From NCBI GenBank assembly GCA_033439255.1, contig CM065883.1, positions 2,480,001 to 2,544,000 of the forward strand: 64,000 nucleotides of DNA. The letters run 5' to 3'. The position numbers were made by a program, and so were the translations under genes. Below are positions 5,370-64,000 of the stretch, one piece after another (the stretch's first letter is position 1; each line of letters opens with the position of its first letter). Below the pieces are notes generated by a model. It ran no database searches. It was given only the letters and a program-made list of their open reading frames with translations, and was not told the DNA's origin. This DNA is from Hericium rajendrae (Eukaryota; Basidiomycota; Agaricomycetes; Russulales; Hericiaceae).

Positions 5370-8240
5370 GTCATGGCGCGATGGTGAGGAGACAATGAGG
5401 AGACTCAGCAGATGTCGAGCACGCGATGGGCGCTCGCTCGTTCGCTATCGACGATCGTGATGTCATCTTACCTGCGAAGTTCAGTGAAGCTCGACTCGGA
5501 GCCAGCTCAGTGCTTCAGCTTCAGCTTCAGCTTCAACACGCTCCTTATTGTATTGACCCATGAACTCCAGGAGGTAGCTGAATCTCCAACCTTATATCGT
5601 CACCCCCACGACGCGTCTGCGTACTCAAACACAAGTATTTTTTGCAGCTCGCTGTCAGAATCCTCGATGGCGGCCATGTAAGGATCGCTCCACCTGTCTT
5701 TGCCATCTGGCCTTTATGGGACGTCCGTCTTGACACACGAGCGGATGTCCACAGGAATGACGGCCAATTTATGCAGATGCGGGCCTATGACTCCAGTCTC
5801 GTCGCCTCTGGTGAGATCACCGATTCCCTTGATTGTTCGCAAGGAATCTATTGACTTTCATTAGGTGTACTTCCGCAGGCGATTCGCTCTCTACAGGCAT
5901 GGACGACAACGTCGCATCTAGTGGGCCTACGTGCAGCCAAGGCATTTCGAGGTGCCCGCAGGAGCTCGAAAAACTGGACAAATACCGGACATCCGATGCG
6001 GCTACATCTCGTAGGCTCATAACCGACCCACTCTCGCTTTAGTAGCTGTCGTCTACTACCCAGACACGATCTGCAGGTGTGCCCCTACGTCTCCCCTCTC
6101 TAGCAAATGCCGTCTCACGCTGCACTATTCCAACAGGATGCATGAGCAGGCCGCACTCTCTTCCATGTCAGTGCGTCAGCATCCGCCTGCCATGTGAGGG
6201 TGGAGGATGAGGACAACTTGTGGAGGACCCGCGCTGGTCAACTTTCCCGGTGACGAACGCCCTATGACGAGAGCGGCATGAGATGGGACCTATTCCATAC
6301 CAAGGCTTAAGGCCTGTCGCCGAAACCGCTGAGATCCGGGATGTTGCGCGAGGAGCCATGTACGGTCCGAGGAGCAGAAGCACGGCCGGCAGCTGAAAGC
6401 AGCACAAATCTGGCCTCCAATTCCCGTGATCGCCTTTATGTCCCTCATTTCAGCCCGTTTTCGTCTCGCTACCCATCTTCTGGCCATTTCCGCTGATGCT
6501 CTTGATGAAACGGTCTCTGGAAGGTCAGCCCGACGCCAAATGTTTTGCGTGACTCGTCTATTGGAACGCCGCATCCAGTGCGCGGGCAAGAGAAATACAA
6601 TGGTGTCAAACTGGACGTGGATATCTCGCTGGAGAACGCGCGGACGATGAAGGCAAGATGTCCAAGAGATGAACTTGCAGGACGAGAACGGCGGGCTGGT
6701 ACGTCAGATGGGCTGTTCGGATGCAGGAAGGACGATCGTAAGGAGACAGGTTTGTCCACGTTCTGTTACCGCGGGAGAATTGTCTACTTTCACGGGTCGT
6801 ATGCTAGCGATTTGAACGGATCCAGGACACGACATAAGAGCTGCATGGAAATCGCCAGCACACGCCGGCACACGACGCCTTTGGCAGATGTGGCAGCCAC
6901 GACCTGGCTATCCCACTACCTCATTGCTTGAGCCAGCTGTTGCTCGGATGTCAGACTATCCTCGATGCAGTTCGGAGCCTTATCGTCAACATTTCAATCG
7001 TTTAGCGACGTGATCACCCAAACCACCAACGTCCTCTGCCCGCAGCCTGCCATAAGAGGACGGAAATTTTCGGCACTGCACCGGCCATGACCGTTTGTAT
7101 TGACACCCAGCACAGTTTATAATACATCACATGCGCGTTCACAGATATTAACAAGAAGCTGCACGCAGATGCGATTCCCAAGTGCTGTCCTCACCACTGA
7201 CGCCCACGAGTCCTGTGCGCTAGGTCGTCTCGCCCTTCAGGCTAGGATCCAATCGACACTCACCGACGATTCGCGCAGAGACACTGCACATCACAAGATG
7301 GTACTCGAAGCCGAGACGGCGTATCATCGAGGACGCATCAATTCAGCCTTCCCTGGCGTATGGCCCTGATGTCCTTGATGTACGGCGTGCAATGTCAGGC
7401 TTTCTCAACAACAATAACTTTGACATCCACATCTTGACAAAAGGGATCGGACATACAACGTGAGAATTGTCTCCACCCTCGACGTCTCGGGCCTCACTTT
7501 GCCTCCATTGCTGGAGGCTTTTCCAGGAGATATGTGCCAATGCAGATGACAAATTTTCCCTCCCTGCAGACAGACGACTGTGGATAATGGTCTGCCAGCT
7601 AGCGCGACGACCCCACGATATCGACAACTGTCTCTGTTGAATCACTCTGCTACATCCCTTCATCTGCATACGACCACGGTACCCCCTGAGCCGACCTCCA
7701 GCTCCTCCCCCTCCGCATACGCCCATTTCATCGCGAATGGCTTACATCTTCCCTATATCGCAGTCCGTCTCCGATTCCGCAAGTTGCTATACGATATCGC
7801 CCAGTCTGGAACCACAGGGCGAGCGCGCTGCCAGGACTCAAGACCACCCAGTTCGAAAGCACAAGGCCGGTCAACGCGCGCAGTCTCCTGTTCGTGCCAA
7901 ATGACGTCGACCTTGACCGCAAAAGCGACGTATTGTGGTTCGTCCGGCTGCATGGAGGACGACAGCGAGCGATCATCGTCTTGGACAGAAACGCGATAGC
8001 GATTGCCTTCGACAACGCGGCGACAGACTGGACCTCTCTATCTCGATTCAAGCTGCATCGGGCGTGCCATCACCAATCGCAAGGGCGCTGAGCCCAATGC
8101 GGGGCAGGAAGCTTGCGGAAGCGGTGGCTCGAGAACTCCTTTTCAGCCGTAAGAGTTCGCCATTCTACGAAGACTAAGACCTGTGTCGGGAAGTCTCTGG
8201 CGAGGTGCATGTGAAGACGTTTGGGTCGGTGAGTGATTTT
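5370..8240. other. Coding-like fragments, no supported gene
   Basis: This 2.9-kb stretch has GC content like coding DNA, but no reading chain holds for long. On the plus strand a plausible spliced piece runs about 5647-6038 (frame GGHVRIAPPVFAIWPLWDVR, an intron from 5820 to 5865, then SLQAWTTTSHLVGLRAAK). Other frames open at 6545-6931 (KYNGVKLDVDISLENAR) and 7741-8091 (LFVPNDVDLDRKSDVLWFV). They lie in different frames with stops between and match no family I know. It may be a decayed gene or genes, or unusual intron-rich coding sequence. 5370-5510 is a diverged copy of the FUR1 promoter. Confidence 0.35.
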
Positions 8241-57059: not shown

Positions 57060-57068
57060 GGAACTCCG

Positions 57069-57180
57069 TAGGCTGGTAGGATTCGGAGTGGCGCATTAGG
57101 ACCGGGCCATGTTGACTCAGCTCGCACGTGAAACGTACTCACCTGACCGCGACTCATACTATGGTCGCCGCGCCGCGTCG
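57069..57180 (+). repeat. Left terminal inverted repeat
   Basis: About 112 bp matching the reverse complement of 62890-63069 with scattered substitutions, apart from a hairpin present only on the right. It includes ATTCGGAGTGGCGCA and GCACGTGAAACGTACTCACC. It directly precedes the DUF6589 gene by 65 bp and probably contains its promoter. Confidence 0.85.
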
Positions 57181-57245
57181 GTCTTTTGTCTTCCGTCGTC
57201 CTGTCGTTGTATCCTACTGCCTACCTTTTGCATCTCTTAACTACG

Positions 57246-60200
57246 ATGAATCCTGCAGAGAAAATTTCGAGTGAGAGTGTCCCTAATGAATCCCCCTTCT
57301 CACGATATATACCTGCAGACGAAACGTTCTGCCCTACTGAGCCACCTCGTCGCGTTCGAGTAGCGCATTCAACACCATGGCGCAGCAAGGTTCCCTTGTC
57401 GACCGTAACCGCTGAGCTCACGAGCACTCCAGAAATATCATTAGCGACCCTTGCTAGAGCCCAAATGCCGCCGCCCGGTGGATTCATTTCGGCCAGTCTG
57501 CCGTTCTCACCAACCCCGTATCATTCATCTCGGCGAACTAAGTATGGAACCGGACAAAATTTTCAGCGATCCACAAGCACCCCATCCTCCCTGTCTCAAC
57601 TCTCATCCAGTAGCGGCAGCAGCTCGGACCTTTCATTCAGTTTGAATGCTGCCGAGCGCACGCTTCCCTCTGCCCAACACGAATCAAGACGGAGCGTGGA
57701 TTATCATAGCATGGCTACCTGGACAGACCACATGCTGGTTGATGAAACCCACAGCGAGACAAACATCTCACGCAGCGGCAATATCTCAGCTCATCCGCCC
57801 GCACTTTCCCCCGACCAAGACACACCGATGTCAGATTTTCATGATGCCGCTACCGGCGAGACAAACCTCCCACGTAACGGCAATCTCCCACCTCATCCTC
57901 CCAATATCCCCTCACTTTTACCTTGGCTGAAGGCTGCTGGCCTAAAGCTTGTGCCCGACGATACATCGGAGAGAGAACGTAGCCGCAGCGCTCCCATGAG
58001 TATGGACGAACGTGTTGCCAAGACGCTCGAGCTGTTTGATCACCGAGGAGGCTCAGGCGCATTTCTCGAGCACCTCTTCACGACAGACAATCCCGATCTT
58101 AAACGTGCAGCTTCCGGCTTTTTGTCTAGCAAGCACTTCCAAAAGGTGCTCGATCTTTGGTGGAGCAGCAATGATGGCCACAATGCTTTCGAGGAGTGGA
58201 TGGGATCGAAGACCGATGACCTCGTAATGCAGCGCATCTCGGACGAGATGGACGCGCTTGCCATATGTTATCGATTTCGAGTCGCAGACGCAACTCCTCA
58301 ATATCTTCTCGATTTCGACCTGGAATCAATAATTGAACCCCTGGTCGAGACCTGTGCCCCGTTCACCTACAGTGTCCTTGTTCGGGCACTTCAAAGCGAT
58401 CGCGCTGCGCGCGAGAACACGCACAAGTCGCCTAACAAGGTCAGCAAAGTGCTCGACATGGTCGCTTCATCTTCTGACTGGTCTTACCTACCAGATTGCC
58501 CTTGTTATAATTTCGCAGCTGGTCAAGCACCGAACGCAAAGGGCAAATCTCTTCGCTGTGCCATATGCTCTCACTCAGTGGGCAGCAGGCGCACCTCGCC
58601 AGATCATCGACGCAAGCGCGAAGATCGCTCTTTCGATTGACTATTCGTCGGTCAATACTGCCCAGGCCGCAGTTTCGGATGGATGCATGGTGCTTGCATG
58701 CGAAGCTGTCAAAAAAGGGAGAACTGGTTTCTGTTACGATAACCTGCAAGTCTGTACATCTCAACATGTCGAGCAACGCCCTGGAGCCGCTCGAAAAGTC
58801 GTACTCGGCACCGCCATGATCCTTTATCCTCTGCGCAATGCCACAGATCAGGCCTGTCTACTCGAGCCCATTCTCGAGCGCCGCAATGCTCTTCACAACA
58901 TTTCATTTGCGGAGCACATTCAATTATCACCAGAGCTGATCTCGCGCATTCAAGCGCATCAGGATATCCATATCGTAGAGGTCTTACTCAAGTACAGCTC
59001 TGAATTTGCGTCAAAGGCTGAATCCTATCTATCCCTGCCTATATTAAAGCATGCCGCTCGGCGCCCACCACCATCCGGTCATCGGACTGAACAGTTCCCT
59101 ATACGTGTTACATCAACCCCGGAACACTCTATTGATGGGAACATCGAAGTTTGGTGAGAGGCCTATGAAGAGCAGCTCAAGATGAACCCAACAGAAGACA
59201 TTGGCAAATTTGCGATACCCACTATAAATGACCAGTCAACCAACGCGAATATTCGGGGAGCGCAAAAAAAGCGCAAGTTTGACAACTCAATATTTAATCG
59301 TCTCGACGCTGCTCAGCCTGCACCAGGCATGTTCCATGTTCTGCTTAACACCTCCTGGTACCTGCTCAATCTTCACCGTGGGGATGCTCGTGACCGCGGT
59401 AGTCTTCAGTCTTTCATAACGCTCCTTGAGAAGAAACGTCATGGTTCCGAACATCCAGATTATCATGCGCTTAAAGCAACAGAGATGCAAGTACTCGATG
59501 GACTCATCCTTCATGCATGGGAGCTAGAATGTGGCTCCGCATCCCTACAGGAGTTTGCAAATTCTGAACCGACCCCTCAGCGTCTTCTTGAGGTTGCGAA
59601 AATAATTCATTGCAAGCATGGATCAACTCCAAGCAAGGAATGCCTTACAGATGATATCCGGCGTAATACAAAACTGCTTATGCGCGACCTTCTTGACTTT
59701 CGTACCCTGCATGATGCCGTAAAATCTGGAGACTTCGGTCGAGTTGAAGATCTTCTCGGCCAGTATACCACCTTTTATTGCGGAGTCGGTGCACGGAACT
59801 ACTGTACCGAGTTCCTGCACTTGATTCAGAATCTTCAGCTAGTATGGACACCTGAGTTTGCGTGAGTACGTGCTAATTCTCGCATTGATAAGCTAATGAA
59901 CTGCTCTATAAAAGGGATGTGATGCGTGATAACATGCTCGTTAACATGAGTGGGCGCGATGGCCACTGGATAGGAATTGATCAAAATATCGAGCATAACA
60001 TTAACATCTTAGAGGTGCGTGCTCAATAGTTCCATTAGTAACTGCTGTTGACAGTGTTTTGTGTTCTCAGAAAATGCATACAGCACGTGGCGTTCACGCT
60101 GACTTTCGCCGTCTATCATCGCTTTCACCTGCAACTCACATCTGGCGTCGGTTGATCAGAATATTCGGTCCAACCCTTGGTGTTCTATACAAGGGGGTCT

Positions 60201-60481
60201 CACATACGGAAGTTGACACCAGCGCTCTTGTCTTCGCAGTCAAGGACAAGAGCATTCAATGGAACCTCCTCGAGACAAAGCCGGGCCGTGAGGTGCATAA
60301 GCGCACAGTAGACGCAATTGCTCTAGGGTCTGATAAGCTCAGCGCAGATGCAGTTGGGCGGGGTCCACTCGTTGAGTTCCACAAGCGTCGCAAAGCATGG
60401 ATCAAATCAGGTATTAAATTTGAGGATGATGGCTCAGACTCGTCAGACTCTGAAGCAAGTATCAGTTCTGACATTGAGTAG
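57246..60481 (+). CDS. DUF6589-domain protein of the mobile element
   Basis: The ATG at 57246 (MNPAEKISSESVPNESPF) starts a 240-residue Ser/Pro-rich disordered region, then MDERVAKTLELFDHRGGSGA. An intron (58441-58498) joins HKSPNK to IALVIISQLVKHRTQRAN, the DUF6589 core: FAVPYALTQWAAGAPRQIID, LSIDYSSVNTAQAAVSDG and CYDNLQVCTSQHVEQRPG. The C-terminal part carries the typical DNMLVNMSGRDGHWIGID with NIEHNINILE across two more introns, and an acidic end. A TGA at 59155-59157 interrupts GNIEVW from EAYEEQLKMN in the same frame, and I found no intron that removes it. DUF6589 is common in Agaricomycetes and of unknown function; a recombinase or transposase-related role is my inference from the element context. 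Confidence 0.8.
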
Positions 60482-60508
60482 ACATAGTTTACGGTAATGT
60501 AACTATAT

Positions 60509-62825
60509 CTAGTCATATACAGGCAGAAGAAGTGTGAGCCCTGGTCCCAACCGGAGGCGCTTGAGTGCCGGCTGCTCTGGTGGTTCCTGCTCGGTGTCCA
60601 TGACATCTTCTTCGGAGTCATTGCTTTCCTCATCGCCGTCTGATCCACCACTATGCCCTGCCTTAACAGCAACTTTTTCTACCCCCACTGGTTTCACCTT
60701 CGTTGCTTTCTTCCGAGGTGGACGAGCAGCTTTGTAAGCAGCATCCCACGTAGTTTTCTCTACCTTGACAGTATGCTCAAATCCTCGAATAGCAGCAAGA
60801 AGATCATCCGCAAAGAGTGCTGACCAAGCCGCAGTCTGACCAAGAGATTTCGTGAGCACAGCCGTAGAGACCTTGATCTGCTCATATGGAATGCGGACAA
60901 GCGTGGCGATTGCGGTGTTCGTCAAGACGAAGCAGACAGGCATGCCTTCCGGAATTTTGCCATTCCACACGTAGGATTCGCGCCAGTCCTCTAGCATCTT
61001 GGTCATGTGAGCACGCTGGAATTTTGGCCTGTACACGTTCTTCTTTCCCGCAGGGCGTTTTCGTGCTGTTTTATTAGGCGGTGGAGCTACATGTAACGCA
61101 GCAGGAAAGTACGATTGCAAGTCGAAATCTGGATTGACACGATGTGCATGATAGCTGCAGCAGTGCGGGCCAGTGAAGTCGAGCGCTGGAATAGATTGTC
61201 AAGGAGAGCACCAAATAGGCATAAGTCGAAGGTCACAGTACCTTCCGGTGAGTCGTCATCAGCATAGCTTGCAAGATATTCACGCAGGCAAGTATTCAAT
61301 CGTGGATAGCACTTCATCGCATCGGAAGTCCGTTTCTCTCTCTTAGTTGGTTTCGCTGACGGTTGCACAGCCCAAGCGTCGTACACCAGCAAGGATAAGC
61401 CCTGAATGTCATTGCGGCGTGAATTGCGACCGAAGCGTTGTAAGAGGTCCTCGACAGTTTGACACAGTCCATACTGAATAACATATTGAATGTCCGAGAT
61501 ATTGATTCCCTAATATAAAAGAAAGTTGTATCAGCTTCGCATATATTTGTTTCGAGTGGAATGTCAAACCAGAGAAAAGGCACTAGTAGCGAAAAGAATC
61601 CGGCAGTGTTTATCGTCGTTTTCAGCAAAGCTCAAGTACGTTTCGTTGAGATAGCTCTTAGACATCCCCGCATGGTAGAATCGAATGAAACCCAGTCTAA
61701 AAAGCTCAGACCGCAGCGACAAAGGAGTGAAGTTGTACAGAGCAACGTGCGCGTCGACCATGAGATCAGCATCGTCAACAAAGACGATCGTTTTTGGGGT
61801 CTGCGAGATATATTCTTCAGTAGAGAGAGTCCTAGTCTGGCCATCCAAAGTCACAGTTGTCGCTTCGTTGATGAGCATGCGAAGGTTCCGAAAATCTTTA
61901 AGGCTGCCAAAGATAGGGTACACCGCATAGACTTGGTTCACACGATTGATCGAAGACTTCAAAATGACAGGATTATCCAAAGCAAGAGAGTCACATAGTG
62001 AGTCCAAGACATGCGATGGCGCCGTGGCCGACAGACAGAGCATCGGTGTTCCGTCTCGAAGTGCAACGCGCAGATCCCAGAGCTGACCGTAGGCCGGTCG
62101 AAAAGCCTCCTGGTTGCCAAGAGCGAGTCCCCATAGTGTTATCATATGAGCCTCATCGCATACCGTCCCTGCAATGCTATGAGACCATGGCTTATTCTTG
62201 AGAAGCAAATCGTGCAGCGGCGTCGAGTGACCTTCGATTGTCTTACACTGTTCCGGAGACGTTATGATGATATTATATGCGCCTTGTTCTATGGCCTGCG
62301 GGCTATTTTAGACAAGTAAAGGTCATGAAACATTGGCACTTGCCTTCCACGTTGCGGTATCATGGCGTAGCTCATGGTTGATCGCAATCGCGTTGATGCC
62401 GGCGAAGTCGCTATTGAGCTCGGCGACCTACGATCAAGTCAATGAAGAACAGCGGCGCAAGGCCAGCAGAGAAAGATTACCATTGAGTCTTGGAGCTTCG
62501 TAAGGGGAGATAGAACGAGTATCATATGGCGCGGATTCATCAAAGCCGCGATAACAATTTGCATTGTCTTCCCTGAGCCTGTTCTTGCGACTTTGACGAC
62601 ATCTCGGCCTTCGTGAAAATGTACAGCAGCAAGAAGTTGATCTTCCCGAAGAGTAATCTTGCCTTGAGTCGACGAGTAGACAAGCGCATAAGAGAGTAGA
62701 GCATTGTCGATAGCCGTTTCAGATATTGTTCCGAGAGCTTGAAGAAATCCCAAGGAGAGAGGTGGTATAAGTGTATTATTGTTGATTACAGTCAATAAAT
62801 TGCTTCGACTTGATCCAGGATCCAT
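60509..62825 (-). CDS. RecQ-like superfamily 2 DNA helicase of the mobile element
   Basis: The ATG at 62825 starts MDPGSSRSNLLTVINNNT. Motif 0/I region LREDQLLAAVHFHEGRDVVK leads to Walker A ARTGSGKTMQ. Motif Ia is LVLSPLTKLQDSM, motif Ib-like IIITSPEQCK, motif II is CDEAHMITLWG, motif III CLSATAPSHV. Motif IV-V regions are KTIVFVDDADLM and ILFATSAFSLGINISDIQYV, and motif VI is LLQRFGRNSRR. After an intron the frame gives LDFTGPHCCSYHAHRVNPDF, a possible zinc-binding segment, then a basic region (NKTARKRPAGKKN) and acidic tail. One intron (after HDTATWK) is GC-AG. All frames join cleanly and the gene is intact. Accessory unwinding during mobility is inferred. Confidence 0.85.
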
Positions 62826-62889
62826 AGAAGAAGAATAAAACAGGTATAACTACATAAATAGGGACTGCAGGATGGGAGGAGGGAGACAA

Positions 62890-63069
62890 GGACGCGCCGC
62901 GGCGAACTCATAGTACAGCGATCAGAGACGCGTCGCGGTCAGGTGAGTACGTTTCACGTGCAAGCTGAATCAGCATGGCTCGCTCCTATTGCGCCACTCC
63001 GAATTCCACCAGTCTCTATACACAACCCCTCCCCCCCTCGTTGTGTACTAGAGACTGGTCACCAGTCTA
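62890..63069 (-). repeat. Right terminal inverted repeat with nested hairpin
   Basis: Reverse complement of the left TIR, extended by a private palindrome at 63008-63059. It precedes the helicase start codon (62825) by 65 bp, mirroring the left side. Confidence 0.85.
63008..63059. repeat. 52-bp hairpin (perfect except one base)
   Basis: ACCAGTCTCTATACACAAC (63008-63026) pairs with GTTGTGTACTAGAGACTGGT (63040-63059) across a pyrimidine-only loop of 13 nt. The word ACCAGTCT also forms the terminus of the element (63061-63068), so the palindrome partly repeats the end of the TIR. Confidence 0.9.
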
Positions 63070-63111
63070 GGAACTCCGAGCAAGGGCTCCGCCGCCCCCG
63101 GCGGCACTCGA

Positions 63112-64000
63112 GTGATTGAAAGCCTATCGTATTCCGAGGCCAGATCAGAGGAAAAAATCTACGGCGCGCCGCCGAGTTATCTCATCCCGATCCAAAGCCG
63201 AGCAAGACAGACACATGTACCACGCGTTCAATTGCTCATCGTTGGGATGGCTATATTAGCTGGCCATTCGTCCACTGAGTCGCTGCTCTACAATCTGACC
63301 GGACTCACGAAGCATGGTGAGCATGATCATCTCCTATGTGCACTAGCAGACTGATGACTTTCAATTCTTGGATATAGCCGTATAACATCGCCATCGTTGG
63401 CGGCGGTATCGCTGGTCTCTATTCAGCCCTTCTGCTACAGAGAGAAGGGCACAAGGTCCACATATTCGAGGCCAGCAATCGCGTTGGCGGGCGCATTTTC
63501 ACGCACTACTTCACCGGCGAGAAAAACCAATTCGTCGATGCAGGCGCCATGATCATACCTGGCACCAATCTACACCGCATTGTCTCCAGCCTCACATCGT
63601 ATATCAACTCGAGCCCTAGCCTTCCCAGAGATATGCAGCTCTCATTTCTGAAGTATCCCGAGACCTGGTGGCGCGTGCGTACGCTTGTCAATGGATACCG
63701 ACAGGACTGGTGGAACCCAGGCATTTTGACCCCTTCGATGGTAAATTGGCCAGTCCCTGACACCTGGGAATCCGAGAGTGCAGACGACCGTCTCACTCAG
63801 GCCACGGACAGCTACATCGCAGATCTCTACAAGAACTTCGACGATACGTTCGACACCCTCCTCACACTTGACGCGCAGTATGGCTCTTTCCGCAAGTTCG
63901 TCGGCTCAACGCGCGGGAGCGACCGCGCCTGGCCCGATGCTTTCATTGACTTCGTCGAGACCGTCTGTTTTGAGACTAATGCATTTGAATTGAGCTGCGC
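63112..64000 (+). CDS. Flavin-containing amine oxidase, partial
   Basis: The main exon begins near 63378 with [20 protein letters not shown], the dinucleotide-binding GxGxxG motif. It continues with [37 protein letters not shown] and helical substrate-domain sequence, and runs off the window. L-amino-acid/monoamine oxidases of this family oxidise amines with FAD and release H2O2. An upstream piece (63112-63216, [20 protein letters not shown]) fits the N-terminal lead of fungal homologues and can be spliced as THPYNIAIV, but its true start is not visible. It begins only tens of bases after the mobile element, so promoter or first exon may have been separated. Confidence 0.8.

What the first reader, a model, noticed from the sequence alone, without database searches (positions are those of the whole stretch)
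57060..63078. A DUF6589 plus RecQ-helicase element with long TIRs and a 9-bp target duplication
The sequence shows 9-bp direct repeats GGAACTCCG, TIRs of more than 100 bp and exactly two convergent genes filling the interior. DUF6589 is abundant in Agaricomycetes without known function, and RecQ-like helicases occur near fungal subtelomeres. Their pairing inside one bounded TIR unit suggests that DUF6589 is the recombinase or a core mobility protein of a two-gene transposon family. I know of no named superfamily with this pair.
Basis: partly seen in the sequence, partly recalled or inferred. Interest (0 to 1): 0.88.

Follow-up and report, generated by a model that had tools for sequence, protein, structure and literature searches.

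The report
Fungal jumping gene carrying RecQ helicase
A 6-kb stretch of a mushroom-type genome looks like a real jumping gene: it encodes a probable cut-and-join enzyme, until now a protein of unknown function, and a DNA-unwinding partner, probably belongs to a known but little-studied group (AcademH), and its hairpin tip is scattered alone through the genome as tiny insertions.

Summary
Window 57069-63069 is a 6.0-kb DNA transposon flanked by GGAACTCCG, with two convergent genes: DUF6589 (one in-frame TGA) and an intact 699-aa RecQ-family helicase. Seven two-ended copies were read in this genome; all seven carry exact, different 9-bp duplications. Of 34 DUF6589 loci, 22 have a RecQ-like gene within 4.3 kb, always on the opposite strand (0.52 expected within 10 kb). 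AlphaFold2 gives DUF6589 relatives an RNase H-like core with a helical insertion; the best structural matches are the Hermes, P-element, ISCth4 and RAG1 transposases, and a D-D-E triad is conserved. 'No named superfamily' is probably wrong: AcademH is described as encoding a helicase, making 9-10-bp duplications and occurring in fungi. Homology to Academ could not be tested. Unexpected: only one end carries a ~54-bp hairpin cap, and that cap occurs alone at about 40 other sites. Of 43 counted, 21 are flanked by 9-bp duplications with at most one mismatch (0.64 expected), with a fixed outer and a ragged inner end: one-ended insertions or excision scars.

The parts
57060..57068 (.). left 9-bp target site duplication GGAACTCCG
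57069..57168 (+). left terminus TAGGCTGGTAGGATTCGGAG... and left TIR (no hairpin cap)
   Evidence: a second copy (C18:242393) starts at the same base, 89% identical over 240 bp
57246..60481 (+). DUF6589 transposase gene; proposed exons 57246-58460, 58495-59861, 59915-60014, 60071-60481 (first intron, 34 nt, is tentative). One in-frame TGA at 59155-59157. Proposed triad: D of CYDN, D of TINDQ, E of DQNIEHN
   Evidence: triad
60509..62825 (-). RecQ-family helicase gene, 699 aa without stop, proposed exons 62825-62481, 62427-62344, 62295-61570, 61509-61242, 61185-60509 (second intron has a GC donor); GSGKT and DEAH motifs present
62918..63015 (-). right TIR proper (86% to left TIR)
63008..63059 (-). 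terminal hairpin (stem arms 63040-63059 / 63008-63026), single-strand DNA fold -16.6 kcal/mol, z -5.6
   Evidence: related stems in other copies
63016..63069 (-). right terminal cap TAGACTGGTGACC... absent from the left end; also found alone at other sites in the genome
63070..63078 (.). right 9-bp target site duplication GGAACTCCG

Best explanation
It is a two-gene DNA transposon of the AcademH kind. DUF6589 is a DDE transposase with an RNase H-like core and an all-helical insertion, like hAT/Hermes, P element and RAG1. It binds the TIRs, cuts at TAGG.../...CTA and joins both 3' ends to a target with a 9-nt stagger, which is filled in as the 9-bp duplication. The RecQ helicase acts in the same reaction, most likely unwinding the ends, the gap or a replication intermediate. 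The right end carries a hairpin cap that is kept in other copies. Copies of this cap alone, with a fixed outer end, ragged inner end and 9-bp duplications, most simply record reactions in which only the hairpin end was joined and the rest was lost at the hairpin, then sealed by host repair. Shown: two-ended copies, 9-bp duplications, gene pairing, predicted fold and conserved triad, solo caps. Inferred: DNA binding and cutting, the role of RecQ, the route to solo caps, and homology to Academ.
Confidence: 0.82

Rival explanations
1. The DUF6589-RecQ elements are a separate, unnamed superfamily that only resembles AcademH in carrying a helicase and making 9-bp duplications.
For: No sequence link between DUF6589 and Academ was shown; DUF6589 occurs in no paper of the held library and PF20231 only in an unrelated one. 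[quoted passage not shown]
Against: Helicase + DDE transposase + 9-bp duplication + fungi is the combination reported for AcademH. A Marasmius genome paper reports widespread putative non-autonomous Academ elements in an agaric (PMC8290104, passage).
Confidence: 0.14
2. For the solo caps: they are excision scars, not one-ended insertions. A full element with 9-bp duplications left; the left end was cut at its terminus, the right end inside the hairpin (compare the staggered cuts of the P element, recalled), and the flanks were sealed, leaving the cap between the two duplications.
For: Explains the duplications on both sides, ragged inner ends with a few filler or lost bases and more solos (43) than full right ends (9). 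The model also matches the P-element transposase. L113 looks like a remnant with a 22-nt left tip joined to a right cap.
Against: In 20 of the 21 solos with a duplication of at most one mismatch, the duplication starts within -2 to +3 bases of the cap's inner end (L105: +8), so no left tip is left; a cut with the same chemistry at both ends should leave one.
Confidence: 0.38
3. For the solo caps: a tiny independent MITE family (~55 bp) that became fixed at the end of the larger elements.
For: The cap alone has 9-bp duplications, and its inner border falls exactly at an internal repeat of the terminal motif (GACTGG) in 9 of 43.
Against: Inner ends vary from site to site instead of being fixed, and more than one cap class matches the ends of larger elements.
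Confidence: 0.15
4. KolobokH: a fungal lineage with a RecQ helicase in the Kolobok superfamily.
For: RecQ helicase, fungi-only (PMC9587614, passage).
Against: Kolobok makes TTAA-specific 4-bp duplications (same passage); here 7 of 7 are 9 bp and none is TTAA.
Confidence: 0.02

Closest known systems
AcademH (Academ superfamily, Kojima 2020; known here only through citing papers)
   Same: DDD/E superfamily with a helicase, 9-10-bp duplications, fungi incl. Basidiomycota, low copy (passages)
   Different: Sequence homology untested; the asymmetric hairpin cap and solo caps are not mentioned in the passages seen (the founding paper was not seen)
hAT (Hermes) and P-element transposons
   Same: Predicted transposase fold: RNase H core with all-helical insertion before the catalytic E
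   Different: 8-bp duplications and no helicase gene (both recalled); GxxH in place of C/DxxH
KolobokH
   Same: Fungal DDE transposon with RecQ helicase (PMC9587614, passage)
   Different: TTAA 4-bp duplications; helicase encoded downstream of the transposase domain, versus genes on opposite strands here (22 of 22 pairs)
Helitron (Helraiser)
   Same: Works alike in two respects: a helicase, and a hairpin near one end that acts there as terminator (PMC4778049, abstract and passages)
   Different: HUH/SF1 chemistry (passages); no TIRs and no 9-bp duplications (recalled); not a member

Membership tests
AcademH | encodes a DDD/E transposase | tested here: met
   predicted fold and triad of DUF6589 relatives; the window copy has all three acids but one in-frame stop. 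Prediction only, no assay
AcademH | encodes a helicase | tested here: met
   699-aa RecQ-family helicase
AcademH | 9- or 10-bp target site duplications | tested here: met
   7 of 7 two-ended copies exact 9 bp; definition from PMC10045372 (passage)
AcademH | transposase homologous in sequence to Academ transposases | not testable with these tools
   no Academ sequence or HMM held; founding paper not held; a fungal TE survey said to hold an Academ HMM was asked by a recalled DOI and not held
AcademX | nuclease instead of helicase, and 3-4-bp duplications | tested here: not met
   9-bp duplications; of 8 XPG_I hits in the genome none lies at a DUF6589 locus (that the nuclease is XPG-like is recalled)
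KolobokH | TTAA 4-bp duplications | tested here: not met
   definition
hAT / P superfamilies | RNase H core with helical insertion | tested here: met
hAT / P superfamilies | C/DxxH motif between second D and E | tested here: not met
   invariant GxxH (G297, H300) in the 66-row alignment; window PGMFH; definition
Helitron | HUH Rep nuclease with helicase | tested here: not met
   eight ORF pieces covering both genes show only DUF6589 and DEAD/Helicase_C/RecQ-type domains; the full helicase likewise

The most novel reading that the evidence does not exclude
The hairpin cap is a functional stop signal in a one-ended reaction. A DDE transposase joins only the hairpin end to the target with a 9-nt stagger, RecQ peels or copies the strand inward, and the process breaks off in the hairpin. 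About 40 solo caps are fossils of such half-finished events. This would make AcademH-type elements partly replicative DDE transposons that resemble Helitrons in behaviour but not in chemistry.
Probability: 0.3. Interest if true: 0.82.

Novelty: new variant of a known kind. Interest (0 to 1): 0.62.

Why it matters
Here it becomes a probable DDE transposase with a testable triad, so many 'hypothetical proteins' could be recognised as transposons. The conserved RecQ partner makes the open question of what a helicase does in DDE transposition testable. The solo caps give many natural products of incomplete or imprecise reactions to read the mechanism from.

Tried and rejected
KolobokH was rejected on duplication length. 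AcademX was sought through XPG_I: none of 8 hits at a DUF6589 locus. Helitron was rejected on domains. The helicase as a chance passenger was rejected by the pairing count. Literature: DUF6589 in 0 papers; PF20231 only in one unrelated paper; AcademH in 7 listed papers, none the founding paper and one an unrelated intensive-care paper; other searches. The third protein search, meant to reach animal relatives or fusions, listed 120 of 569 hits (only 8000 candidates were scored); the 120 listed carry PF20231 alone, none is labelled Academ, and the species names that I recognise there are mushroom-forming fungi. A search for LEFT ends (20-base pattern, up to 2 mismatches) found 15 matches (control 2): 7 belong to two-ended copies, 1 is a truncated copy, and the 7 orphans (5 distinct sequences) were read over about 150-190 bases; none is a short insertion with a duplication. 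Left tips shorter than the pattern would be missed. I first took the E of NYCTE as catalytic; it is not conserved in all groups and gave way to the E of DxxxExxN. In one search exon 3 was started one base late, which gave a false frameshift; one search corrects it. On the second model only VIA-align was run. Stem covariation of the caps was judged by eye from four classes; no pair count was run.

Full report
THE ELEMENT. GGAACTCCG stands at 57060-57068 and 63070-63078, flush with termini TAGGCTGGTAGG... (left) and, read inward, TAGACTGGTGACC... (right). The TIRs match over 99 bp at 86%. Outside the TIR, the right end has a further 54-bp cap that the left end lacks. The cap takes part in a hairpin (-16.6 kcal/mol as single-stranded DNA; 200 shuffles -6.0 +/- 1.9; z -5.6).

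OTHER COPIES. A pattern for the left end gives 15 matches (2 for the reversed control). I compared 8 candidate end pairs. Seven are two-ended, with sizes from 576 bp to the 6,001-bp window copy; all 7 have exact and different 9-bp duplications: GGAACTCCG, CAAATAAAG, GCATGTACA, TACTGTAAG, CTTGACGCC, TTAGGCTCA, GAATCTTCT. The eighth (C1:918181 with C1:919631) is not a pair: its right member is a solo cap with its own near-duplication. Of the 9 full right ends the two not in this list are L064, whose left tip is broken by another repeat, and C3:1737864, for which no left end was found. The six two-ended copies besides the window's are 576 bp to about 2.0 kb and so cannot hold both genes. L064 (C11:1912500-1920500) holds a second DUF6589-helicase pair (65-68% DNA identity over the two longest matches). 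C18:242393 is a copy whose identity ends after 240 bp. This supports the borders without an empty site; no second assembly was available.

THE GENES. DUF6589 scores E 6.7e-55 on window 59158-59865. Splicing gives one continuous gene except for an in-frame TGA at 59155-59157, so the window copy is probably not autonomous as it stands. The helicase gene splices into 699 aa without a stop: DEAD 1.3e-16, Helicase_C 4.2e-13, recQ_fam 1.5e-33 but below that model's cut-off (116.3 against 219.8 bits); best solved relatives RecQ and WRN, about 1e-16.

THE PAIR IS GENERAL. DUF6589 gives 68 matches, which I merged by hand into 34 loci. Helicase loci: 19 from a search with a 247-aa piece of the window helicase and 28 from the RecQ family model (31 of 92 candidates were scored); the union is 36. 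Of these, 22 lie within 10 kb (in fact within 4.3 kb) of a DUF6589 locus, at 22 different DUF6589 loci; 0.52 would be expected. Orientation is opposite in all 22 (18 convergent, 4 divergent). Against: 12 of 34 DUF6589 loci are unpaired and 14 of 36 helicase loci have no DUF6589 within 10 kb; some of the latter are probably host RecQ genes.

KNOWN KIND. [quoted passage not shown] PMC8290104 (passage) reports widespread putative non-autonomous Academ elements in Marasmius oreades. The founding paper (Kojima 2020) was not held. I therefore call the element AcademH-like: three defining features met, the decisive one (sequence homology) not testable here. That AcademH is the nearest name was recalled first and then checked in these citing papers.

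SOLO CAPS. The word TAGACTGGTGACC occurs 54 times in the genome (reversed control 1). All 54 places were held; identical 85-base stretches were merged to 52 distinct sites: 9 continue into the TIR, 43 do not. At least two of the 43 (L085, L107) match hardly more than the word itself, and L109 keeps the whole hairpin; they were kept in the count. Of the 43, 8 have an exact and 21 an at-most-one-mismatch copy of the abutting 9 bp 25-80 bases downstream; swapped flanks predict 0.06 and 0.64. So 22 of 43 have no good duplication. Of the 8 exact ones, read by eye, 5 are exactly 9 bp, 2 can be read as 10 and 1 as 11. In 42 of 43 the match to a full end stops at or before the inner repeat of GACTGG (+1; L109 +7), most within the second hairpin arm. 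In 20 of the 21 good cases the duplication starts within -2 to +3 bases of that stop (L105: +8). No comparable solo left end was found. L123 is a further solo cap outside the 43 (one mismatch). Stem arms of four cap classes differ in sequence yet stay largely complementary, which suggests that the hairpin is selected; this was read by eye, not tested with a pair count.

MECHANISM. Shown: borders, duplications, pairing, predicted fold, conserved acids, solo caps. Inferred: the DUF6589 protein cuts and joins; RecQ unwinds in the same reaction; the hairpin marks one end. For solo caps I weigh one-ended joining (transposase joins only the hairpin end, host repair seals the other side), excision scars, and a separate MITE family at about 0.45, 0.38 and 0.15. 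One-ended joining has been proposed for Dada elements (PMC3706591, passage), and hairpin-limited transposition by other chemistry is known for Helitrons (PMC4778049, abstract and passages).

VERDICT. New here, as far as the searches named go (no mention of DUF6589 in the held library), are the evidence that DUF6589 is the DDE transposase and the asymmetric cap with its solo copies; the AcademH founding paper was not seen and may hold part of either.

Noticed in passing
L062, L063, L052, L072, L076, L078, L105, L111: Solo hairpin caps of about 45-57 bp with exact 9-bp duplications, a genome-wide family of micro-insertions or scars.
   Followed up: yes
L113 (C5:36590-36870), L116 and L117 (C17, C18): A 19-22-nt left tip joined directly to a hairpin cap, in both orientations; the C5 and one C18 site lie near contig ends.
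   Followed up: partly
G000:C16:255258-268923: Two DUF6589-RecQ pairs in mirror image about 5.7 kb apart, both divergent rather than convergent.
   Followed up: no
window 63008-63069 versus L064 and L018: The hairpin cap sits on the helicase side in the window but apparently on the DUF6589 side in L064 and L018, so the cap may change ends.
   Followed up: partly
L064 about 6031-6427 and 7580-7976: A ~400-bp repeat with CATCAGGAACCTTC termini occurs twice, once apparently inside the DUF6589 gene of the second pair; a similar-looking repeat interrupts that element's left end (by eye).
   Followed up: no
L004 about 2135 onward: After 240 bp the second left-end copy gives way to a sequence that looks like a Tc1/mariner element (by eye only).
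   Followed up: no
window 63385-64000: Right of the element starts an ORF that by eye reads like an FAD-dependent amine oxidase; not scanned.
   Followed up: no
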